Assembly: GCA_947586255.1 (NCBI GenBank)
Contig: CANPXP010000006.1
Span: forward strand, 1-64,000
Source of the DNA: an uncultured Lachnospiraceae bacterium
Lineage (GTDB): Bacteria; Bacillota; Clostridia; Lachnospirales; Lachnospiraceae
Reading direction: 5' to 3'
Length of the DNA: 64,000 nt
Positions 1,358 to 20,122 of this stretch are shown here, one piece after another; position 1 is the stretch's first letter, and the number at the start of each line of letters is the position of its first letter. The notes below the pieces were generated by a model that worked only from the letters and a program-made list of their open reading frames with translations, had not been told where the DNA came from and did no database searches. Both the position numbers and the translations under genes were made by a program.

Positions 1358-2098
1358 TCAATTGTCTTTGCTCATCTCCTTTTTCAGCCGCCGCATAATC
1401 TTTTTTTCCAGCCTGGAAATATAGGACTGCGAGATGCCCAGCATCTCCGCCACCTCCTTCTGCGTCAGCTCCTTGCCGTCCGCGTTTCCCAGCCCGAAAC
1501 GCAGACGGATGATGGTCTGCTCCCGCTCTGACAGCTTCGCGATCGCCCTGACAAGCAGCTTGCGCTCCGCCTCGTTCTCCAGATCCTTATAGATGACGTC
1601 CTCGTCCGTCCCGAGAATATCCGACAGCAAAAGCTCGTTGCCGTCCCAGTCGACATTGAGCGGCTCGTCGATGGACACCTCCAACTTGTGCTTGCTGTTT
1701 CTTCTCAGATACATCAGAATCTCGTTCTCAATGCAGCGGGACGCGTAGGTCGCCAGCTTAATATTTTTGTCCGGGTTAAAGGTGTTGATGGATTTGATCA
1801 GACCGATCGTCCCAATCGAGATCAGATCCTCCACGCCAACGCCCGTATTGTCAAATTTTTTGGCGATATATACCACCAGACGCAGATTGTGTTCTATCAG
1901 AAGCGCCTTGGCCTCATCCTCATACTCCGTCCCGAGGTCGCCGATAATCTCATTCTCCTTCTCGCTCTCAAGGGGCGGCGGAAGCACCTCCGCACCGCCT
2001 ATGTAATGAATGTCTCCCTGTCTGTTCATAAGGAATCTCGTGTCCTTACGCACCATCTTAAACTGCACTTTTCCGGGAATTGCCACTTTCAGAACCAT
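1358..2098 (-). CDS. sigE: Sporulation sigma factor SigE precursor
   Basis: This is the mother-cell sigma factor of early sporulation, made as inactive pro-SigE and matured by SpoIIGA. The 246-residue product starts with a short amphipathic pro-sequence, then the family junction [12 protein letters not shown], sigma-70 region 2 ([18 protein letters not shown], about residues 95-115) and a region 4 helix-turn-helix ([21 protein letters not shown]). Its length is close to the B. subtilis protein (239 residues). It directly follows spoIIGA: the Shine-Dalgarno AGGAGGAG overlaps the spoIIGA stop, so the two are translationally coupled, as in Bacillus. SigE targets include spoVD, which makes this gene directly relevant to the split spoVD upstream. 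The order ftsZ-spoIIGA-sigE makes the identification firm. Confidence 0.97.
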
Positions 2099-2109
2099 TT
2101 TTACTCCTC

Positions 2110-2916
2110 CTAGCCTTCTAATAACCGTGGGTTCAGTATCATCTGATAGACGCCGTCCTCAGAGATTCCCGTATTACAAACCGCGACGATAACATGCTCC
2201 CTTCTGATCGCCTGCGCCTGCGCTTCGATCACGATCTCCGGAATCTCATACGCCGGCAGGATTCCTCTGTCCTTCCCGACGCTTTGAAAAGGCACCGCAT
2301 GATATTTCTCCGGTCTGAAAGCCGGCTTCAGCCTTTTTGCAAGCTTCCTGCCAATCAGATTCACGGGCGCACCGCTTACCGGATCGGACAGATGATTGCC
2401 CGTATCCACGAGTGCCTGCACGCGCAGCCTCTCCCCCGGCACACAGATCTCCACCGTTCTCAGGCAGTTGTCCCTCTCGCGCTTCATGCGCCTCAGAATC
2501 GCCGCCAGAATGCGATACGCGGCATATTCCGCCGCCAGCGTGACAATCAGGCTCACGTTTCCTCTCAGAACCGTTCTCAGGCAATTCAGGATCCATATCA
2601 TACCGCTGCCCAAAAAAAAGCCGCAGCCCGCCAGTACAAGGCTTGCGCGCAGCAATCTTCGCAGCCGCCCGATCCGGTAAACCGCCCACAGCATACCCAG
2701 GCTGACCGGCACGGCGCTCAGGGCGCTTCGCATCCCCGCCGTACCGAGGGGCAGCGTGACCGCGATACAGCTAAACAGCGCTCCCATCGCAGCTCCCGCC
2801 CAGATTCTTCTGTGCGTGGCAGTACACTCGAGAATCTGTCCCGCGAGAGACAGCAGATAGACATTCCCCGTCATCTGCAGGATGAAAACACTGTCGATAT
2901 ACAGTTTGTAATACAC
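2110..2916 (-). CDS. spoIIGA: SpoIIGA, membrane aspartic protease that activates pro-SigE
   Basis: The N-terminal half holds about five hydrophobic segments. The cytosolic C-terminal half carries the aspartyl-protease motif in [14 protein letters not shown]. In the known system SpoIIGA sits in the sporulation septum and cleaves the SigE pro-sequence after a signal from the forespore. I chose GTG at 2916 because GGAGGT lies five bases upstream and the protein then begins [10 protein letters not shown], as expected for the family; an upstream in-frame ATG at 2979 would add 21 non-conserved residues and lies upstream of the probable promoter. Length is 268 residues, slightly under the Bacillus protein. 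It forms a two-gene operon with sigE. Confidence 0.93.
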
Positions 2917-2940
2917 AGCCCACCTCCGTGTTCCGGCTTT

Positions 2941-2971
2941 ATTATATGCAAAGCGGGACAAATATTTTGTC
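2941..2971 (-). promoter_or_regulatory. Probable spoIIGA-sigE promoter with 0A-box-like palindrome
   Basis: Read on the minus strand, a perfect -10 box TATAAT (2941-2946) lies 10 bases after the palindrome GACAAAATATTTGTC (2957-2971, arms GACAAA/TTTGTC). A -35-like ATGACA ends 21 bases before the -10. In B. subtilis spoIIG the -35/-10 spacing is unusually long (22 bp) and Spo0A boxes overlap the -35 region. The geometry here is similar, but each arm matches TTTGTCGAA only in part, so Spo0A control is an inference. The start codon at 2916 lies about 18 bases after the expected transcript start. Confidence 0.55.
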
Positions 2972-3014
2972 ATAATCACGGCGTGGTTTTGCTTTTTTTG
3001 CAGACAGATAACAA

Positions 3015-12536: not shown

Positions 12537-13191
12537 CTAAGTTTTATTATAGTCCATCTCCTCCAAATATGGAAGAATGTTTTCAAAAAGCTGCCGCACG
12601 ACCGGCGCCGCAATCTGGCCGCCGTAATAAGTTCCCTGCGGATTATTGATAATCGCAACCGCCAGCACCTGCGGGTCGTCCGCCGGTGCGAAGCCGAGGA
12701 ACGAAGCGATGTATCTGCCGCTCCCTCTCGGCAGCGTCTGACTGGTGGCCGTCTTACCGCCGATGCGGTATCCCTCCACCGCGCCGTTTTTGCCGCTGCC
12801 CTCCGCCACCACCTGCTCCAATATGTACCGCATCGTCGCGGAGGTCTCCTCGGACACCACATGATCCCTGACCGGATAGGAGAATGTCTCGCTGTTTCCG
12901 CCATCCGCATCCGCCGTCCGTACGCCGAAATGCGGCGTCACCCGCCTGCCGCCGTTGATGATCGAGGAGGCCGTCACCGCCAGCTGGATCGGCGTGATCT
13001 GGAAGGACTGTCCGAAGGAGATCGTCGCAAGCTCCACCGGACCGATATTGTCCACATCGTGCATGATCGTCCCCGCCTCCCCCGGCAGATCGATGCCCGT
13101 CTTATCCAACAGCCCGAACTGCCTGAAATAAGAGTAAAACCGCTCCGCGCCGATCCGGAGTCCCACCGTGATGAACACCGGGTTGCAGGAA
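12537..13191 (-). CDS. spoVD: spoVD, 3' part (separated by the inserted element)
   Basis: This segment encodes the second half of a SpoVD-type class B penicillin-binding protein: NPVFITVGLRIG, the SFGQSFQITPIQLA region and IGGKTATSQTLPRG, which occupies the place of the KTG motif but reads KTA. It has no Shine-Dalgarno or plausible start of its own. In-frame stop TAA lies at 13200-13202, the recombinase stop, just outside the 9-bp core (13183-13191). When the core is joined to the copy at 16665-16673, the codons read TCC TGC AAC, giving SCN and continuing in frame for 215 residues to the stop at 12537. The C-terminus ends soon after the transpeptidase domain and lacks the PASTA domain found in B. 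subtilis SpoVD. Confidence 0.92.
13183..13191 (-). repeat. Core of the element's attachment site, spoVD 3' side
   Basis: The coding-strand core TTCCTGCAA is shared exactly with 16665-16673. Outside it the two flanks differ: here CGCAGC precedes and CCCGGTG follows. The core encodes the serine, cysteine and start of the asparagine codon of the SxN active-site motif. The recombinase stop is nine bases away. Confidence 0.85.
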
Positions 13192-13199
13192 GCTGCGTA

Positions 13200-14900
13200 T
13201 TATAGAGTCCCACTCCTGTGCACATACCGCGCCGTGATCCGAAACAGATTTTCACCGGCCGTCCCGTCCTGCGGGGAAATATCTGCCTCCCGGATCTGCG
13301 GCATACCGGGCAGCGCGTTCCTGTCAAAGAATATCTCCAGTCTTCCGTCCGAATATACCATGATCCTTTTGATTCCGGCAATGAATCCCCGCGCCCTGGC
13401 CTGCCGGATAATATCCCCGTCGGCCAAAGACTCCCTGATTTTTTCCAGCCGCCTCTCACAGTCGGCGCGGGAAGCGCCTGTCTGTTCCAGATCGCTGATC
13501 CGCGCGGCAAGCGGCGCCATCTGCTCTTCCAACTGTCGATTATACCGCGCGAACTCCCCGTCTGCAATCGTTTCGTTCATCAGCTTGTCAAACAGGACGT
13601 CCTTTTTCCCGGAAAGCTTCCCATATTCCCGCCTGCACCGGCTCAGCTCCTCTTTCGCCGGATTGTCCCGCATCGCTCTCCGCGCGGCGGCAAGCGCCTC
13701 GCCGACAACGCTCTGCTGCGCGCCGAAAATATTCTCGCACTGCTCCGCGCATACCGCCTCAAGCAGCTGATGGAGCTCCTCATCCAGAAGATTGATATTG
13801 TCACAGCCCAGCGGATTCTTCGCCTTCCGCCCGGCCGTCAGCGCCGTCGAACATTTCCACTCCGCGATCCTGCGCCCCGCCTTCCCCGACCGGAAGGAGG
13901 ACCTGTAATACACCTGTCCGCACTCCGCGCAGTAGAGCTTCTGCGACAGGTCATACATGCCCGCCTTGGACAGATCCCTCCGGTAATCCCCGTACCGGTT
14001 CCCGATCCGCCTGCCTTCCAGCGCCCGCAGCGCCTCCTCCTGGCACTCCTTCGTGACGATCGCCGGCAGCGCGTTCTCTATATAGATCCACTCCTCCGGC
14101 GGCAGATTGACGAACCTGTGCGCCTCGAAATCGTACTCTCTGGTGTGGATGACCATCGTGCCGTGCGCCCGGGGCGAATACAGCATCTTGCGCCACTGCA
14201 CGTTCGAGATCCGTTTCCCGCTCTTGCCGCGGATGCCCCGCTCATACATGACGTTGGCGATGGTGTAGAATCCTGCTCCGGAGCGCGCCATGGCAAAAGC
14301 CTCTCTGTAGGCCGCGGCCTCCGCCTCGTTGACGACATACACGTCCTTCTCTACCCTGTCCCAGCCGAACATCGGTCTGGTGATATTCAGGCCGGCGCTC
14401 CTGCCCTGTCTGTGCTGCTCCTGTCTGCGGCTGTGGGAGTTTTTGATCTTCTTGGAGAGCTCTCTGCTGAACTCCTCCGCCAGAATCGCCTTGATACCGG
14501 AGATCAGCCCGTCATCCGGCGTATAGAACCTGTCATCAATATAGATGTAGAGACGCTTGCCGGTCTCCGTGAGTCGGTTCAGGAACAGGTACCAGTCCTT
14601 CGCCGAACGCATGAGCCGGTCGATGGACTTGATCATCACGATATCGAAACAGTCCTTCTCCATGTCCTCCAAAAGCCGTCGGTACTCCGTCCGATTCTTC
14701 ACGGACGTTCCCGACTCGCTCTCGATATACTGCGCGGTGATCAGCCAGCCCTTCCGTGCCGCGATCTCCCGGCTCTCCTCCGCCTGGACCTCCAGCGCGT
14801 TCTTCTGCGCCTCCTCCTCTGTGGAACAGCGGTTATAGATACCGACGCGCTGCCGCGGCAACGATCGCGCATGAGAGTTCTGCCCCATGCCGCACCTCAC
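13200..14900 (-). CDS. Large serine recombinase of the spoVD element
   Basis: Site-specific recombinase likely to join and exchange the two cores. The N-terminal resolvase domain contains VGIYNRCSTEEE with the catalytic serine (S26 counting from the GTG) and the arginine-bearing SIDRLMRSAKD. The recombinase domain follows (RPMFGWDR to MLYSPRAHGTM), then a zinc ribbon (YCAECGQ, later a cysteine pair) and a coiled coil (about residues 420-480). All expected residues are present and the frame is open, so the enzyme looks active. The start is GTG 14900, overlapping the TGA of the small ORF as GTGA, with AGGA upstream; ATG 14888 with GAGGTG is an equally good alternative. Its stop is nine bases from the core, in the same frame as spoVD. 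Confidence 0.95.
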   Translation of the reverse strand: MRCGMGQNSHARSLPRQRVGIYNRCSTEEEAQKNALEVQAEESREIAARKGWLITAQYIESESGTSVKNRTEYRRLLEDMEKDCFDIVMIKSIDRLMRSAKDWYLFLNRLTETGKRLYIYIDDRFYTPDDGLISGIKAILAEEFSRELSKKIKNSHSRRQEQHRQGRSAGLNITRPMFGWDRVEKDVYVVNEAEAAAYREAFAMARSGAGFYTIANVMYERGIRGKSGKRISNVQWRKMLYSPRAHGTMVIHTREYDFEAHRFVNLPPEEWIYIENALPAIVTKECQEEALRALEGRRIGNRYGDYRRDLSKAGMYDLSQKLYCAECGQVYYRSSFRSGKAGRRIAEWKCSTALTAGRKAKNPLGCDNINLLDEELHQLLEAVCAEQCENIFGAQQSVVGEALAAARRAMRDNPAKEELSRCRREYGKLSGKKDVLFDKLMNETIADGEFARYNRQLEEQMAPLAARISDLEQTGASRADCERRLEKIRESLADGDIIRQARARGFIAGIKRIMVYSDGRLEIFFDRNALPGMPQIREADISPQDGTAGENLFRITARYVHRSGTL

Positions 14901-15040
14901 GTTCTGTCCTGCGCGGGACTTAAGATCTGCTCCCGCATCCGCAGTTTCTCCTCCTCGCTGATCAGTCCCCTCTGCGCCAGAATTTCAGAAATGTTGAGCA
15001 GCAGCTGTTCCTTGGCTCTTTCCATACTTCTCTCTTTCAT
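14897..15040 (-). CDS. Small protein coupled to the recombinase, candidate directionality factor
   Basis: The conserved-looking part is MERAKEQLLLNISEILAQRG followed by LISEEEKLRMREQIL, a small helical protein with a C-terminal helix resembling SHOCT-type modules; I do not recognise a named family. I place the start at ATG 15040 (47 residues); ATG 15025 is also possible. Farther upstream starts would fall in or before the putative promoter at 15073-15102. Its TGA overlaps the recombinase GTG, so both are made from one message in fixed ratio. Large serine integrases often need a small directionality factor to recombine hybrid sites, and this protein is the only such candidate in the element. 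That role is inference. Confidence 0.6.
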   Translation of the reverse strand: MKERSMERAKEQLLLNISEILAQRGLISEEEKLRMREQILSPAQDRT

Positions 15041-15072
15041 ACTGCCTGTTCCCATGTACAAGTTCTTGCTCC

Positions 15073-15102
15073 ATTCTATTCTGAGAGAATCGGCAATATT
15101 AC
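15073..15102 (-). promoter_or_regulatory. Candidate sigma-E promoter for the recombinase operon
   Basis: On the minus strand GTAATATT (15095-15102), 14 bases, then AATAGAAT (15073-15080). The sigma-E consensus, as known from B. subtilis, is KMATATT, 14-15 bases, CATACAHT. The -35 matches fully, the spacing is exact and the -10 matches at six of eight positions. It lies just after the terminator of the cargo operon and just before the small ORF. A sigma-A promoter of good quality is not visible here. The region is AT-rich, so a chance match is possible. Confidence 0.45.
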
Positions 15103-15133
15103 TTTCGTCGCACAAAATACTTTTCTTCCGTAA

Positions 15134-15171
15134 CAAAAGGGCACTCGGGATCGCTCCCAAATGCCCTTTTG
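15134..15171 (-). terminator. Terminator between cargo genes and recombinase operon
   Basis: A long stem pairs CAAAAGGGCA (15162-15171 read on the minus strand) with TGCCCTTTTG (15134-15143), with an inner GGGA/TCCC pair, followed by a short T-rich stretch. It begins 11 bases after the stop of the upstream exported protein gene and should keep cargo transcription out of the recombinase. Confidence 0.8.
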
Positions 15172-15182
15172 AAACTTCCTTT

Positions 15183-16055
15183 TTATTCTTTTCTTACCCA
15201 GGTAACAGTACCGTTGTATGAGTATTTTCTGTCATAGGAACTGTAAGTCTGAATATCAAGTGCATTTCCTCCACCAGTCACACTTGGAGTAACCCAAAAG
15301 TCACTTGGATGATCGACAGAGACGCTAATAGTATGTGTTTGGTATGTATATCCGGCGGGTGCATATATAATGACATGTCTGTAGTTGGACATATCGTTAC
15401 TATTCCTTATGGTGGTACCCGAGTTTGCGAAAGATTGAACTATCGTATCACCGGCAGTCTTGTAATAAGTGCGATTATCCTCACCTGTTCCCAACAACAG
15501 CTGCCCGTCCACATAGGCGACCTTTCCGGCGCTCAAATCATCCGCCGTAGCTGCCGCCAGACCGATCTCTTCCGCGCCGGAAGTATCTTCCCCGGAGGAA
15601 GCCGTGATCAACTTGCCGTCCTTCGTCTTATAATAGGTATCCCCCGACAGCTCGGCGATCCCCGCCGCCGACGACTGACTGTACGTGATAGCCGGCGTCA
15701 GCATGCGGAACGTCGGCTGCGCGGGCTGTGACGCCTGCGCGTCTTTCTCGCGCGTGACGCTTCCGTCTCCCCGCAGATAGACGCCGATCCCGTTTAACGC
15801 AGTCAACGCATCCAGCATCCCGGACTTATAGCTCTGCTCCAGCGTGTCAATCTCGCCCGCAAGATAAGCGAGGTCTCCCGTATCGATCACCACCGAGCCG
15901 CCTCCATAGTTCACGATTCCCTTCGATTGGATTTTGCCGGCGCGCCCGCCGCCCTCCTCTGCCAGGACGCTTCCGGACGCCATCAGCGCCGTGACCAGAA
16001 TCGCCAGGATCACCGCTCCCGCTCCCAACAATATGCTTCTCTTTTTCTGATTCAT
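15183..16055 (-). CDS. Exported protein of unknown function carried by the element
   Basis: The 290-residue protein begins with a signal peptide or anchor (MNQKKRSILLGAGAVILAIL, ending near SGSVLAEE). The first mature segment, KIQSKGIVNYGGG to DLAYLAGEIDTL, matches in spacing the mature part of the preceding small protein, so the two are paralogous at this domain. The central segment has TADDLSAGKVAYVDGQLLLGTG, a pattern I associate with repeats in phage or surface fibre proteins, and two copies of a YYKT motif. The C-terminus is Ser/Thr/Tyr-rich and beta-like. No cysteines or enzyme motifs are apparent. It is followed by a terminator and is likely co-transcribed with the smaller paralogue. 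Its benefit to the host or element is unknown. Confidence 0.75.
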   Translation of the reverse strand: MNQKKRSILLGAGAVILAILVTALMASGSVLAEEGGGRAGKIQSKGIVNYGGGSVVIDTGDLAYLAGEIDTLEQSYKSGMLDALTALNGIGVYLRGDGSVTREKDAQASQPAQPTFRMLTPAITYSQSSAAGIAELSGDTYYKTKDGKLITASSGEDTSGAEEIGLAAATADDLSAGKVAYVDGQLLLGTGEDNRTYYKTAGDTIVQSFANSGTTIRNSNDMSNYRHVIIYAPAGYTYQTHTISVSVDHPSDFWVTPSVTGGGNALDIQTYSSYDRKYSYNGTVTWVRKE

Positions 16056-16070
16056 GCCGTTCTTTCCTCC

Positions 16071-16292
16071 TTACTGTGCAAACTCCGCATACAGCCTGTC
16101 CACCTCTTCCTGCAGATAGTGAATGTCCGAGGCGTACACCGCCACTTCCTGTCCCTCGCGAAACACAAGGTTTCCCTTGCTGTGAATCGCTTCCTCCTCC
16201 GCCAGAACGCTGCCTTTCGCGCCGAGCGAAATCCCCAATGCGCAGACCGCGCCGGCAAGCGCAAGCGTTCCGCTTCCCCTTTTCTTTTTCAT
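16071..16292 (-). CDS. Small exported protein of the element, paralogue of its neighbour
   Basis: The 73-residue product has a signal peptide (MKKKRGSGTLALAGAVCALG, with a likely cleavage near SVLAEE) and a short mature part AIHSKGNLVFREGQEVAVYA followed by SDIHYLQEEVDRLYAEF. Its mature part aligns with the N-terminal domain of the next gene (IQSKGIVNY, DLAYLAGEIDTL), ending in what looks like a coiled-coil helix. The start at 16292 is fixed by GGAGGA seven bases upstream. Fifteen bases separate it from the next gene. I do not recognise a named family. Confidence 0.75.
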   Translation of the reverse strand: MKKKRGSGTLALAGAVCALGISLGAKGSVLAEEEAIHSKGNLVFREGQEVAVYASDIHYLQEEVDRLYAEFAQ

Positions 16293-16534
16293 ATTTCGTC
16301 CTCCTTCCGCCTCCATCCGACACCGGCACAGATACCCCTCCGTATGCGCCTGCAATGCCGCGCGCATACAACAGATGACAGCGCGACATCGCCAGCAGAT
16401 TTCCACTCATTTTCTCAAAACAGCTGCAACTTCCCCAAATCCAATTCAAAACCGCAAACACTGTGGAAGCTTTGCCCGATACGGGCCGACTGATAACGAT
16501 ATCAGGATAGAAACTATATATGTTTGATTTTTAC
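16293..16534 (-). other. Long untranslated leader of the cargo operon
   Basis: About 240 bases separate the expected transcript start from the first cargo gene. I see a small hairpin (GCCCGTATCGGGC, near 16474-16486) but no recognisable riboswitch class, no convincing small gene and no further repeat. Confidence 0.4.
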
Positions 16535-16564
16535 ATTATATACGGAACGACATGCTCCCGTCAA
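16535..16564 (-). promoter_or_regulatory. Strong sigma-A-type promoter of the element's cargo genes
   Basis: On the minus strand TTGACG (16559-16564), an 18-base spacer and a perfect TATAAT (16535-16540). It lies inside the element, about 95 bases from the core, and points to the two exported protein genes. It implies expression in growing cells, before any excision. Confidence 0.8.
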
Positions 16565-16648
16565 CTATGACTTGTATGAAAAATTGCACAAAACAGTTGT
16601 TCTCCGAACGTCTTTTCGCGAATCCATTTCCGGTGAAACAACTCTACG

Positions 16649-17758
16649 TTACATAAATTCCTGCTTGCAGGAATTCATCGTCCCCTGCACGAAGGTCTCC
16701 GCGCCGTGGCCTCCCACCTTGTGGCAACGGATTCTTCTGTCCTCCACCATAATATAGCCCGGACAATGGAAGGTATCCTCCGGCGTGACTGCGCCGGATT
16801 CCAGTCCCGCCGCGGCCGTGACAATCTTGAAGGTGGAGCCGGGCTCATAGGTATCGTTGATGCAGCCGTTGCGCCAGACGCCGTTGAGAAGCTCCTGTCT
16901 GCGCTCCCCGCTCAGTTCCACGCCCGTCTCGTCCTCCGGCAGCGCATAGGGATCGTTCAGATCGAATTCCGGCACATTCACCATCGCCAGAATCTCCCCA
17001 TTCTGCGGGTTCATCACGAGGATGGAGACGCTGTCCGCCTCCTTCGTCTCCATCGTCTGCAGGGCCAGCTGCGTCGCATAGCTCTGAATATTCATGTCCA
17101 TGCTGATATACAGGTCTCTCCCCGCAACCGGCTCGACGCGCTCCTCCCCCGCCTCGGGCACCTCTACGCCCTTTGCGTCCGTGACCGTCAGGATCGTCCC
17201 TGCCTCCCCCTGCAGCGCATCCTCGTAAACCACTTCCAGCCCTATGATACCCTGGTTGTCGCCGCCGGTGAAGCCCAGCACCTTGGAGCCCAGCGAGTCG
17301 TACGGATAGTACCGCTTATAATCCTCATCCACCTTGACGCCGGCCAGGTCATATGCCCTGACAGCATCGCCGACGCTCTTGTCCACGTTGCTCTTAATCT
17401 TTTCAATGGAGGAATATTTCTCCACTCTCTTCCTGACATACTCCTCCGACAGCCCCAGTTCTCTGCACAGCACGCGGATCACTTCCTCCTGATCCGTGAT
17501 CTGACTGTGAATCACCGAGATCGTGCACACCGTCTTGTTGTCGGCCAGTATCTTCCCGTTGGCGTCTATGATCCGTCCTCTGGCCGCCTTGATACGCCGC
17601 TCCCTCTCGTGCAGCTCCCTGGCCTTCATCGTGTAGTACTCCGACCGGAAAACCATCAGGTACACAAGCCGCCCCATCAGCACGGCAAACACGAGCAAAA
17701 TGAGAAACATAGCCGCCACGGTTTTGTTCCTGTGGTACGTCTTGTGCTGCCGCGGCAT
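16649..17758 (-). CDS. spoVD: spoVD, 5' part (interrupted within the SxN motif)
   Basis: Encodes the first half of a SpoVD-type class B PBP: a short basic N-terminus, one membrane anchor (VAAMFLILLVFAVLMGRLVYLMVF), the dimerisation domain with RGRIIDANGKILA, and the start of the transpeptidase domain with the catalytic serine in EPGSTFK. The reading frame then gives GTMNSC and runs into the element for five codons (KQEFM) before TAA at 16649. The start is ATG 17758 with GGTGG upstream (ATG 17770 lacks a Shine-Dalgarno). SpoVD acts in the outer forespore membrane and makes cortex peptidoglycan with SpoVE. Without the second half the transpeptidase site lacks its SxN and KTG-type motifs and should be inactive. 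Location after pbpB matches Bacillus. Confidence 0.93.
   Translation of the reverse strand: MPRQHKTYHRNKTVAAMFLILLVFAVLMGRLVYLMVFRSEYYTMKARELHERERRIKAARGRIIDANGKILADNKTVCTISVIHSQITDQEEVIRVLCRELGLSEEYVRKRVEKYSSIEKIKSNVDKSVGDAVRAYDLAGVKVDEDYKRYYPYDSLGSKVLGFTGGDNQGIIGLEVVYEDALQGEAGTILTVTDAKGVEVPEAGEERVEPVAGRDLYISMDMNIQSYATQLALQTMETKEADSVSILVMNPQNGEILAMVNVPEFDLNDPYALPEDETGVELSGERRQELLNGVWRNGCINDTYEPGSTFKIVTAAAGLESGAVTPEDTFHCPGYIMVEDRRIRCHKVGGHGAETFVQGTMNSCKQEFM
16656..16675 (-). repeat. Attachment site, spoVD 5' side, with palindrome around the core
   Basis: The core TTCCTGCAA (16665-16673, minus strand) lies in a perfect palindrome with 9-bp arms, AATTCCTGC and GCAGGAATT, around a central AA (16656-16675). 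Serine recombinases cleave at a central dinucleotide between paired half-sites; AA is inside the shared core and is not self-complementary, so it could define direction. The other core copy at 13183-13191 shares only the left arm, as expected after integration. Confidence 0.7.
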
Positions 17759-17776
17759 CTCTTCCACCATACAAAA

Positions 17777-17825
17777 AACCTCATCAAAAGGTATTGGTAT
17801 AATCTATTACCGTTTTGATGAGGTT
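17777..17825 (-). terminator. Intrinsic terminator between pbpB and spoVD
   Basis: A 13-bp perfect stem (AACCTCATCAAAA at 17813-17825 read on the minus strand, with its complement at 17777-17789) is extended by an inner GGTA/TACC pairing and followed by six T residues. It lies 15 bases past the pbpB stop and just before the spoVD start, separating vegetative from sporulation PBP transcription. Confidence 0.9.
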
Positions 17826-17839
17826 ATTCTTCATTCTCT

Positions 17840-20122
17840 CTATTCCGTTTTATCGGCGCTGTCCTCCCCGGAGCCGTCCTCCGCATCGCCGTCTTCCCCG
17901 TTCTCTTCCTCCTCGTCCTCCAGCATACTGCCGCCGTACACCTGCGTTCCCGTATCGGGATCGTACAGATAACCCGTGTTCGGATCTTTCAGATAGCCGG
18001 TCTCGGGATCGACGGGGAAAGTTTTCCAGACCTCGCGCTGTTCCCGCTCTTCCTCGCTCTCTCCCTCTTCTTCCTCCGGGTTCTCCTCCGCATCTTCTCC
18101 GACGGTTTCGGGGTCGATCGGATTGCCTTCCTCGTCCAGAAGCTGTTCTTCGTCCGCCTTCTCCGGCATCTTCATCTGGATCTGCAGTTCCTCCAGTTCT
18201 GCCCGCTCTTCGTCGCTGAGTTCCTCCGTCATGAAGATATTCAGATACGGGAGCACCTCCGTAAGTACCTTCTTGACGATTCTGGTGGCATGTTTTGCGT
18301 CATCCTGCGGCCACACGTTGGGCCTGTCCACCACCACATAGATGACGATCTGCGGATCGTCCGCCGGCGCGTAGCCCATGAAGGACACCACGTATTCGTT
18401 GTTGCCGCGGGGCAGTGTCTCGGCTGTCCCCGTCTTGCCGCCGATCATGTAGCCGGCCGGTCTGGCCGTCTTACCTGTTCCCTTCTCACCGGTCACAACC
18501 GTGTTACAGAATTCTTTAATCATCTCGCTGGTGGACTGGGAGATCGTCTGTTTTAAGATTCTCGGCTGAATATTCTCCAGCGTCGCGCCGTCCGCCGTGG
18601 TGATCTTGTCGACAATGTGCGGCTCGTAATAATAACCGCCGTTGATCAGGGAACAGAAGCCCGTGATCATCTGAATCATCGTCGCGTTGAAGCCCTGACC
18701 GAAGGAATTGGTCGCCAGCTCCGTGATCCGCATACTGTCCTTGTTATAGACCATGGTGGCCGTCCGCGCCTCGCCCGCCAGATCGATGTTCGTCTTCAGG
18801 CCGAAATTGAACAGATGCTGATAGTCCACCATATTATTTTTGCCGAGCTTAAAGGCCACATTCATCAGCACCACGTTGCAGGAGCGCTCTATGCCCTGCT
18901 GCACGGTGAGCATACCGTCGCCGTACGTCTGGTGGCACTTGATCGGCTTCTCGCCCTCCACCACCACCAGACCGCCGTCGCAGTAGTAGGACTCGTCGCC
19001 GTTGATCGCGCCGCTGTCGATCGCCGCCGCCACCGTGAAGGGCTTCGCCACGGAACCCGGCTCGTAGGGCTCCACGATACAGTAGTTCTTCCACAGCGCG
19101 TTGAGCTGCTGGTACATGGCCGCGTCGTCCATGTCGTCCAGGAGTTCCTGCGTCACGCTCTCCCCCGTCCGGCTTCCCTTGTCGTCCACGAGCGGCATAC
19201 CGAGCAGACAGTCCGTATTTCTCGGATCGTTCAGGTCAAAGCTCGGATAACTCGCCATCGCCAGAATCCTGCCGGTGTTCGCCTCCATAATGATACAACC
19301 CACGTTCTCCGCGCCGTTGCCCGGTCTGACATTATCCTTGTATTCCTCATTGAATTCCTGCAGATATTTCTCCACGATGCTCTGGATATTGGCGTCGATG
19401 CTGAGCTGCAGATTGCAGCCGTCCTGCGCCGCTATGGTGGTTCTCTCCAGATTGGAATCGTCGTTCAGATAGCCGTATTCCCTGCCGTTGATGCCGCTGA
19501 GCGTATCGTTATAGAATTCCTCCAGCCCGTATGTACCCTGATTGTCGTTGGTCGTGAAGCCGATCACGTCGCAGGCCATCGTATTGTTGGGATACTCCCG
19601 CTTGTATTCGCTCTCAAACCACACGCCCCCGGCGCTGATGGAACTGCCGGTCTCCGGGTCGGTGTCCATCTCCTGGAAAGCGCTGACTTTCTCGTAATCC
19701 TGACGCTTGGCCATCACGTAGTAGGCGGATTCCGGATGCGCCGCCATATAGTTTCTCACTTCATTCGTGTCTATATTGAAACACTTTCTGAGCGCGCTCA
19801 GCGTGGGCTCCACACTCTCCTCATTCCGCGTCAGGCGCTTCGTGTCCAGTATGACATTGTAGACCTTGTTGCTGACCGCCAGAATCGTCCCGTTGGCGTC
19901 GACGATTTCTCCACGCTTAAAAGGTATTGTCACAGAATCATATTCCTGCTGCGACAATACCTGTTTTTTGTACTCTTCGCCATTATCTCTCGTAATCAGG
20001 TACAGGCGGACGCTGAGCCCCGCAAAAGCCGCCATCATAATTAAGAACAGAAACAACAGCTTCTTCTGCATCCTGACCGTAAATTTCATTATGCCATTTC
20101 TGGTTTTCGTACGACCGCTCAA
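17840..20122 (-). CDS. pbpB: Class B penicillin-binding protein of division (PBP2B/FtsI type)
   Basis: Septal transpeptidase that crosslinks peptidoglycan with FtsW. The protein has one membrane anchor (KLLFLFLIMMAAFAGLSVRLYLI), a dimerisation domain (KRGEIVDANGTILA) and all three catalytic motifs: EPGSVAKPF, ERSCNVVLMNVA and IGGKTGTAETLPRG. The last 130 or so residues form a very acidic Glu/Asp-rich tail containing short repeats of the type DPETGYLKDPNTGYLYDPDTG, with no PASTA domain. The start is uncertain: TTG at 20122 has GGTGA upstream, and ATG at 20089 begins MKFTVRMQKK. Co-directional with ftsL. A strong terminator follows. Confidence 0.95.
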   Translation of the reverse strand: MSGRTKTRNGIMKFTVRMQKKLLFLFLIMMAAFAGLSVRLYLITRDNGEEYKKQVLSQQEYDSVTIPFKRGEIVDANGTILAVSNKVYNVILDTKRLTRNEESVEPTLSALRKCFNIDTNEVRNYMAAHPESAYYVMAKRQDYEKVSAFQEMDTDPETGSSISAGGVWFESEYKREYPNNTMACDVIGFTTNDNQGTYGLEEFYNDTLSGINGREYGYLNDDSNLERTTIAAQDGCNLQLSIDANIQSIVEKYLQEFNEEYKDNVRPGNGAENVGCIIMEANTGRILAMASYPSFDLNDPRNTDCLLGMPLVDDKGSRTGESVTQELLDDMDDAAMYQQLNALWKNYCIVEPYEPGSVAKPFTVAAAIDSGAINGDESYYCDGGLVVVEGEKPIKCHQTYGDGMLTVQQGIERSCNVVLMNVAFKLGKNNMVDYQHLFNFGLKTNIDLAGEARTATMVYNKDSMRITELATNSFGQGFNATMIQMITGFCSLINGGYYYEPHIVDKITTADGATLENIQPRILKQTISQSTSEMIKEFCNTVVTGEKGTGKTARPAGYMIGGKTGTAETLPRGNNEYVVSFMGYAPADDPQIVIYVVVDRPNVWPQDDAKHATRIVKKVLTEVLPYLNIFMTEELSDEERAELEELQIQMKMPEKADEEQLLDEEGNPIDPETVGEDAEENPEEEEGESEEEREQREVWKTFPVDPETGYLKDPNTGYLYDPDTGTQVYGGSMLEDEEEENGEDGDAEDGSGEDSADKTE

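What the first reader, a model, noticed from the sequence alone, without database searches (positions are those of the whole stretch)
12537..17758. spoVD is split by a 3.5-kb element exactly at the active-site SxN codons, and precise excision would rebuild it
The 5' part ends in GTMNSC and the 3' part resumes with NPVFITVGL, the two halves of a SpoVD-type PBP at the conserved spoVD position. Both ends carry TTCCTGCAA (16665-16673 and 13183-13191). Joining them gives TCC TGC AAC, the SCN motif, in frame, and one 579-residue protein. The element holds an intact serine recombinase in the same orientation. Known systems of this kind interrupt sigK and some other sporulation genes; I know of none described for spoVD, but cannot search.
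Basis: partly seen in the sequence, partly recalled or inferred. Interest (0 to 1): 0.95.

Follow-up and report, generated by a model that had tools for sequence, protein, structure and literature searches.

The report
Excisable element splits spore gene spoVD
In several related gut bacteria a mobile DNA element sits exactly inside the active-site code of a gene used to build the spore wall, and cutting it out precisely would restore the gene, so sporulation there probably depends on a built-in DNA edit.

Summary
spoVD (minus strand, 17770-12537) is cut by a 3,482-bp element with a serine recombinase; the joined flanks read one open frame with the SCN motif. It is not an isolated oddity: 10 of 77 genomes of the genus are split at the same codon, 65 are intact, one is frameshifted, one has no SpoVD hit. 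Three other genera show the same split, a fourth probably. All 13 complete cases rejoin in frame; AA, the start of the Asn codon, is the longest run shared by all 13 end pairs. Elements are 3.5-24.7 kb; one at least 34.7 kb long is an ICE. In the cleanest pair both gene halves stay under strong purifying selection after insertion (dN/dS about 0.03). Spore genes are present. Best reading: an ICE-derived, spoVD-specific family of sporulation-gene intervening elements, like skin or gin. Excision, its timing and the helper protein are inferred, not shown. My searches found no report of a natural spoVD split.

The parts
16665..17770 (-). 5' part of spoVD (N half: membrane anchor, dimerisation domain, start of transpeptidase domain with STFK, up to Cys of SCN); frame runs on into the element to a stop at 16649
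   Evidence: PBP_dimer; Transpeptidase 2-103; TIGR02214 4-350
12537..13182 (-). 3' part of spoVD (C half, from the last base of the Asn codon to the stop)
   Evidence: Transpeptidase 108-299; TIGR02214 349-558
16665..16673 (-). core repeat TTCCTGCAA at the attL junction; proposed crossover AA = 16665-16666
13183..13191 (-). core repeat TTCCTGCAA at the attR junction; proposed crossover AA = 13183-13184
13183..16664 (.). the intervening element with one copy of the AA, 3,482 bp
13200..14900 (-). large serine recombinase, 566 aa, same orientation as spoVD, next to attR
   Evidence: (best NCBIfam hit XisF, below cut-off)
14897..15040 (-). small gene of 47 aa directly before the recombinase and overlapping its start by 4 bp; candidate recombination directionality factor (role inferred)
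   Evidence: present before the recombinase in all 13 elements; alignment of 10 of them; helical hairpin, mean pLDDT 89.8; no convincing Pfam match
15073..15102 (-). conserved non-coding block GTAATATT-N14-AATAGAAT, candidate promoter of the small gene and recombinase
   Evidence: spacing of 14 in all 10 genus elements; single hit in the window with up to 2 mismatches, 0.03 expected, but the pattern was taken from this block
15183..16055 (-). 290-aa cargo protein with an N-terminal hydrophobic segment, function unknown; relatives in 6 of 10 genus elements counting this one
   Evidence: low-confidence model
16071..16406 (-). 111-aa ORF, small protein of unknown function, partly alike the 290-aa protein
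17772..17829 (-). between the 760-aa PBP and spoVD: terminator-like hairpin (arms 17779-17789 and 17813-17823, then a T run) with a conserved GAATAAC..AATARATT block in and beside its loop; candidate spoVD promoter (inferred)
   Evidence: 24 chosen genomes
17840..20122 (-). 760-aa FtsI-type PBP of the division cluster, intact neighbour
1358..2979 (-). sigE-like (1358-2098) and spoIIGA-like (2110-2979) genes, intact; names by recognition of the translations and gene order
   Evidence: sigma-factor hit at 1373-2011

Best explanation
The element is a stripped-down relative of an integrative conjugative element whose large serine recombinase uses the codons of the SpoVD active-site SxN motif as its chromosomal attachment site. 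While integrated it leaves SpoVD cut off after the Cys of SCN, which growing cells presumably tolerate because they divide with other PBPs such as the adjacent FtsI-type one. During sporulation the recombinase, probably helped by the 47-aa protein encoded just before it, recombines attL with attR at the dinucleotide AA, releases a circle and restores one SpoVD reading frame, so that cortex peptidoglycan can be made. Excision is most likely confined to the mother cell, so the spore keeps the element. SHOWN: the split, its recurrence at one codon in 4 genera, in-frame rejoining in all 13 complete cases, purifying selection on both halves after insertion in the cleanest pair, horizontal movement, ICE genes in one relative. 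INFERRED: that excision happens, its timing and cell type, the helper role, and that spores need it.
For: Same split at the same codon in 10 of 77 genus genomes, recombinase before the C half in all 10, and in 3 other genera. All 13 joined genes are open through the motif. MNSCNP is present in all 65 intact genes of the genus. attP arms symmetric about the AA: 15 or more of 25 positions in 8 of 13 elements; control windows average 6.2. dN/dS in the G023/G024 pair (sister recombinases, shared cargo) 0.033 and 0.029 for the halves, 0.108 for the recombinase. No second SpoVD-like gene in any of the 10 split genus genomes at E<=1e-40 besides the FtsI-type PBP. SASP in 12 of 13 split genomes, SpoIVA in 9 of the 10 genus ones, SpoIIIAA in the 9 tested. 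Small gene before the recombinase in all 13. ICE genes in G009. Precedents: skin, SPbeta/spsM, vfbin, gin, yin.
Against: No reads, no transcripts, no excised form seen. attP symmetry is weak in 5 of 13 (9-12 of 25), and the control maximum (17) equals the window's value. SpoIIID gives no hit in 4 of the 10 split genus genomes (G000, G065, G068, G073), only an N part in G069, and is itself split in G009; intact in 4. SpoIVA not found in G066. The promoter block matches the genus's spoIIIAA and spoIVA motifs only in part and I did not see it in the three other-genus elements. In C. difficile SpoVD also acts at the polar septum, before mother-cell excision could help. dS above 1 makes the key dN/dS values rough.
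Confidence: 0.8

Rival explanations
1. Plain parasitic insertion: an ICE-derived element that uses spoVD as its attachment site and inactivates it. Carriers no longer sporulate, or sporulate without SpoVD, and excision serves only transfer.
For: ICE genes in G009 and G073; element moves between species; SpoIIID not found in 4 of 10 split genus genomes; only 10 of 77 genomes carry it.
Against: Both halves stay intact and under strong purifying selection, dN/dS about 0.03 in G023/G024 whose insertion predates their separation; stripped elements keep recombinase, small gene and both ends but no transfer genes that I recognise; spore genes kept.
Confidence: 0.1
2. Excision is real but not tied to sporulation: it happens at random or in growing cells, giving a mixed population in which only excised cells can sporulate, with loss or re-integration of the element.
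For: Close relatives with and without the element (G009 split, G075 intact); mobility of the element; the yin element was detected excised at all time points (PMC10747680, passages); C. difficile skin recombinase is expressed in vegetative cells too (PMC5025042, passages).
Against: The small elements have nothing I recognise for transfer, so random loss should remove them; a conserved promoter-like block precedes the recombinase unit in all 10 genus elements.
Confidence: 0.09
3. The two halves act as two separate proteins, or the C half is used from an internal start.
For: Both halves keep open frames and are conserved.
Against: The halves split the active-site motifs (STFK on one, SCN and KTA on the other, with the break inside SCN); relatives have one protein (65 of 77).
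Confidence: 0.01
4. Assembly artefact.
For: Draft assembly of 88 contigs; in G009 the halves lie on two contigs.
Against: Assemblies from different samples (Lapin isolates, water deer) and four genera show the same codon with different inserts.
Confidence: 0.01

Closest known systems
skin element in sigK (B. subtilis, C. difficile)
   Same: Serine recombinase inside the element, precise rejoining of a sporulation gene; small directionality factor (CD1234 in C. difficile; skr overlapping spoIVCA in B. subtilis) (PMC5025042, PMC6957869, passages).
   Different: Target is sigK and the element is prophage-like; there excision is shown. Here the target is a cell-wall enzyme, the element has no recognised phage gene and excision is not shown.
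gin element in gerE (B. cereus)
   Same: Non-phage mobile element splitting a mother-cell gene; recombinase GirC and directionality factor GirX shown to act (PMC5595907, passages).
   Different: 28.6 kb with three serine recombinases, in gerE; here one recombinase, 3.5 kb in the window, ICE-type relatives, spoVD.
SPbeta in spsM, vfbin in spoVFB, yin in yabG
   Same: Prophage or prophage-like elements that interrupt sporulation genes (PMC10747680 introduction, passages; PMC4191935, search listing).
   Different: Other target genes; phage-derived; not at an enzyme's active-site motif as far as the passages tell.
Laboratory spoVD::ICEBs1 insertion in B. subtilis
   Same: An ICE integrated in spoVD (PMC3715440, passages).
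   Different: Secondary site with 8 mismatches to attB, tyrosine integrase, excision below 10^-4; no natural system.
XisF of the fdxN element
   Same: Best NCBIfam hit of the recombinase (8.8e-20, 71 bits); recalled as an excision recombinase of a developmental element in cyanobacteria.
   Different: Far below the model's cut-off of 375 bits, so not that protein.

Membership tests
Sporulation-gene intervening elements (skin/gin/vfbin kind) | Insertion inside the coding sequence of a sporulation gene | tested here: met
   the role of SpoVD in the cortex is from C. difficile papers
Sporulation-gene intervening elements (skin/gin/vfbin kind) | Own site-specific recombinase inside the element | tested here: met
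Sporulation-gene intervening elements (skin/gin/vfbin kind) | Ends whose recombination restores the reading frame exactly | tested here: met
   13 of 13 complete cases
Sporulation-gene intervening elements (skin/gin/vfbin kind) | Directionality factor in the element | tested here: inconclusive
   conserved small gene before the recombinase in 13 of 13; function untested
Sporulation-gene intervening elements (skin/gin/vfbin kind) | Excision during sporulation, with a circular product | not testable with these tools
   no reads or cultures
Sporulation-gene intervening elements (skin/gin/vfbin kind) | Sporulation-type control of the recombinase or its helper | tested here: inconclusive
   conserved promoter-like block, partial match to sigmaE-type upstream motifs
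Prophage-like element | Phage structural or replication genes | tested here: inconclusive
   no Pfam or NCBIfam hit in the three non-recombinase ORFs of the window element and one weak IMG/VR hit to the recombinase; PHROGs was not searched
Integrative conjugative element | Relaxase and type IV secretion genes | tested here: not met
   not found in the window element; present in the relative G009, in part in G073

The most novel reading that the evidence does not exclude
The split is a two-stage developmental switch. Before excision the truncated SpoVD (anchor, dimer domain, no complete active site) serves as a non-catalytic partner of the SpoVE-type synthase at the polar septum; after mother-cell excision the active enzyme appears only for cortex synthesis. 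The insert would thus separate in time the two SpoVD roles known from C. difficile, where a catalytically dead SpoVD still supports asymmetric division in part (PMC12713402, passages), and the host would gain from keeping the element.
Probability: 0.05. Interest if true: 0.9.

Novelty: new member of a known kind. Interest (0 to 1): 0.66.

Why it matters
It would add a cell-wall enzyme gene to the short list of sporulation genes rebuilt by DNA excision, and it shows conjugative elements, not only phages, in that position, with a size series from an ICE to a 3.5-kb remnant. The attachment site lies in codons that can hardly change without losing the enzyme, which may explain why one recombinase family recurs at one codon in four genera. 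It also gives a natural test of when SpoVD is needed: an enzyme required for the polar septum could not wait for mother-cell excision. In practice, gene callers will report spoVD as truncated in such genomes and may wrongly score them as unable to sporulate.

Tried and rejected
Ten family genomes picked (eight or so for a middling best score, the rest as known cases) were re-searched. G097, G127, G213, G259 and G269 are single open frames of 611-693 aa with an internal insertion near residue 283, not splits; G120 is intact; G302 has only an N half ending at NSC about 420 bp before a contig end and counts as probable. Family genomes whose best hit was weaker (only FtsI-type level) were not re-examined, so further splits there are not excluded.

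Viral origin: one IMG/VR scan gave a single 23%-identical hit, not pursued. The 290-aa cargo protein: low-confidence model (mean pLDDT 45.9), so no fold search was made. The promoter regular expression was off by one base and found nothing; redone. A firm sigmaE assignment was rejected: spacing and -35 fit, the -10 does not fully match spoIIIAA or spoIVA. One origin with vertical descent was rejected: recombinase and host trees conflict and dS differs (both trees are quick ones). Pfam scans of the larger elements covered 10 ORFs of G009 and 10 from G073, G024, G067 and G068, not every ORF. The repeat finder had a length threshold too high to print the 5-base spoIIID core; that core was read by eye.

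Full report
What is there. On the minus strand the window holds a division and cell-wall cluster: mraZ, mraW, ftsL, an FtsI-type PBP of 760 aa (17840-20122), spoVD, mraY, murD, ftsW/spoVE, murA, ftsQ, ftsZ, spoIIGA and sigE (names recognised from translations and gene order, the PBPs also). spoVD is in two pieces. The N piece (from ATG 17770 or 17758) ends ..GTMNSC, then runs into element sequence and stops at 16649. The C piece resumes NPVFITVGL and ends at 12537. Both match TIGR02214 best, end to end in the profile, but the 760-aa neighbour also hits this model, so the names rest on the combined score and on the order known from B. subtilis (recalled). Joining the pieces gives 583 codons without a stop.

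The ends. TTCCTGCAA marks both ends and occurs nowhere else in the window. Over a 14-base window the positions identical in all 13 attL/attR pairs are AA, a G two bases before it and a C two bases after it; AA, the first two bases of the Asn codon of SCN, is the longest run. With the crossover at AA, the circle's attP has arms that are inverted repeats about it: 17 of 25 positions for the window element, 15 or more in 8 of 13, but only 9-12 in G066, G069, G024, G023 and G009. Control windows along the window's locus average 6.2, with 15 of 5,940 at 13 or more and a maximum of 17. attB is only weakly symmetric (8-11 of 25). Symmetric arms round a short central crossover are what I recall for large serine integrases.

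Recurrence. In the genus 10 of 77 genomes are split at this codon (G000, G009, G023, G024, G065-G069, G073), 65 have one open frame, G020 is frameshifted and G030 has no SpoVD hit. G046 has an intact gene plus a second C fragment at a contig end. In all 10 the recombinase (the window's own, or 62-82% identical) stands directly before the C half and mraY. Among the next-best recombinases of the genus with loci (L023-L042, 24-40% identical) none lies beside spoVD within the flanks held, about 1.5 kb and less at contig ends. In a sample of 397 family genomes 17 have a recombinase at E 1e-120 or better. Besides the own one, three (G139, G197, G339, three other genera, 49-53% identical) sit in spoVD with the N half upstream: elements of 7,996, 6,334 and 4,953 bp; the other 13 show no spoVD in their flanks. 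G302 has an N half ending at the same codon near a contig end.

Rejoining and selection. The joined genes of all 13 are open through the motif; in G009 the halves lie on two contigs. MNSCNP is present in all 65 intact genes, so the attachment site is always available. Median dN/dS among split genomes is 0.057 (N, 30 of 45 pairs usable) and 0.051 (C, 43 of 45), against 0.045 (868 of 2,080) and 0.055 (1,583 of 2,080) among intact ones. The cleanest test is G023/G024: sister recombinases and shared cargo, so the insertion predates their separation. Their halves have dN/dS 0.033 and 0.029, the recombinase 0.108. A gene no longer rebuilt should not be held like this, though dS of 1.2-1.5 makes the figures rough.

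Movement and origin. The spoVD tree needs four changes between split and intact. The spoVD recombinases form one clade against the seven next-best ones of the genus (support 100), yet their order conflicts with the hosts: G065 and G067 have recombinase dS 0.48 but spoVD dS 2.17 (N) and 1.54 (C). So the element has moved between species. Sizes are 3,482; 3,626; 3,827; 3,837; 8,664; 15,926; 17,860; 23,679 and 24,687 bp, and at least 34.7 kb in G009 if its two contig ends belong to one element. G009 encodes relaxase, coupling protein, PrgI/TraG ATPase, NikA/MobC, M23 peptidase, ParA-like ATPase and topoisomerase, so it looks like an ICE; it also has a tyrosine integrase. G073 keeps the coupling protein and ParA-like ATPase. 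G024 carries solute-binding and GH30 genes, with relatives in G023. The small elements keep the recombinase, the small gene before it, the ends and unknown genes.

Helper and control. A small protein (about 42-63 aa, by choice of start) is encoded directly before the recombinase in all 13: one search printed 11, those of G066 and G067 are. The window's copy is predicted as a helical hairpin (pLDDT 89.8). In B. subtilis skin the directionality gene skr overlaps the start of spoIVCA, and C. difficile uses the small protein CD1234 (PMC6957869, PMC5025042, passages), so this is the natural candidate. Upstream, a block GTMATAYY-N14-AATARRAT keeps its spacing of 14 in all 10 genus elements. Its -35 resembles those before spoIIIAA (GTCATA) and spoIVA (AGAATA) of the same genomes; its -10 has A where theirs starts with C (CATATATT, CATATACA). 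The three other-genus elements do not show it by eye. spoVD itself is preceded by a conserved GAATAAC..AATARATT block in and beside a terminator-like hairpin in the 24 genomes I chose to align. I read both as candidate mother-cell promoters; neither is proven.

Is the host a sporulator? SASP is found in 12 of 13 split genomes (the miss, G139, is 61% complete), SpoIVA in 71 of 77 genus genomes and 9 of 10 split ones, SpoIIIAA in 10 of 10 tested, nine of them split. A sigK-like frame is uninterrupted in the own genome, but no genome of the 77 exceeds that model's cut-off. Against: SpoIIID gives no hit in 26 of 77 genomes, among them G000, G065, G068 and G073; G069 has an N part only, G009 a split copy, and G066, G067, G023 and G024 an intact one.

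Known work. Natural intervening elements are described for sigK, spsM, spoVFB, gerE and yabG (PMC10747680, PMC5595907, passages). My searches found no natural spoVD case (open-access PMC only, subscription papers mostly missing). The nearest is a laboratory ICEBs1 insertion in B. subtilis spoVD that does not excise detectably (PMC3715440, passages). SpoVD is needed for the cortex in C. difficile (PMC8417463, abstract; PMC12713402, passages), and there it also helps build the polar septum. That raises a timing question: mother-cell excision would serve the cortex only.

Verdict. Observation confirmed, interpretation supported; excision and its timing remain inferred. A new target gene and a new ICE-related element family within the known kind of sporulation-gene intervening elements.

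Noticed in passing
G059 (L224, G059:C3:3500-21000); also G009:C52/C92, G044:C2, G069:C47: spoIIID, another sporulation regulator, looks split too. In G059 the N part (..SKSTVH) and C part (KDVT..) lie about 13.8 kb apart with a different serine recombinase (22% identical) directly before the C part; both junctions share TACAT by eye, and joining there would read STVHKDV in frame. G009 and G044 have C parts and several N parts.
   Followed up: partly
G072:C2, G046:C24, G074:C30, G062:C32 and others: Several genomes have an intact spoIIID plus one or more extra copies of its first 45 codons nearby, as if elements had inserted repeatedly or carry the gene start themselves.
   Followed up: no
window 12537-13182 and spoVD of relatives: SpoVD here has KTA where PBPs usually have KTG (recalled): 64 of 65 intact genus genes (one ambiguous), all 10 split ones, and 9 of 9 loci from other genera looked at; the FtsI-type neighbour has KTG.
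   Followed up: partly
G024 (L081, L082) and G023 (L083, L084): The 24-kb spoVD elements of these two carry a sugar-use island in place of transfer genes: solute-binding protein, GH30 glycosidase and a chemoreceptor by Pfam in G024, with relatives in G023.
   Followed up: partly
window 15183-16055 and relatives in L073, L074, L075, L077, L078: The 290-aa cargo protein family has a conserved N-terminal two thirds and a C-terminal part that differs strongly between elements; no Pfam match in those scanned, no usable model.
   Followed up: partly
recombinases of G066, G073, G024, G023, G009 versus G000, G065, G067, G068, G069: The first group has an extra C-terminal stretch of about 50-70 residues that the second group lacks.
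   Followed up: no
G020:C4 (L122): spoVD is broken by a frameshift near residue 282 rather than by an element; assembly error or real loss not distinguished.
   Followed up: no
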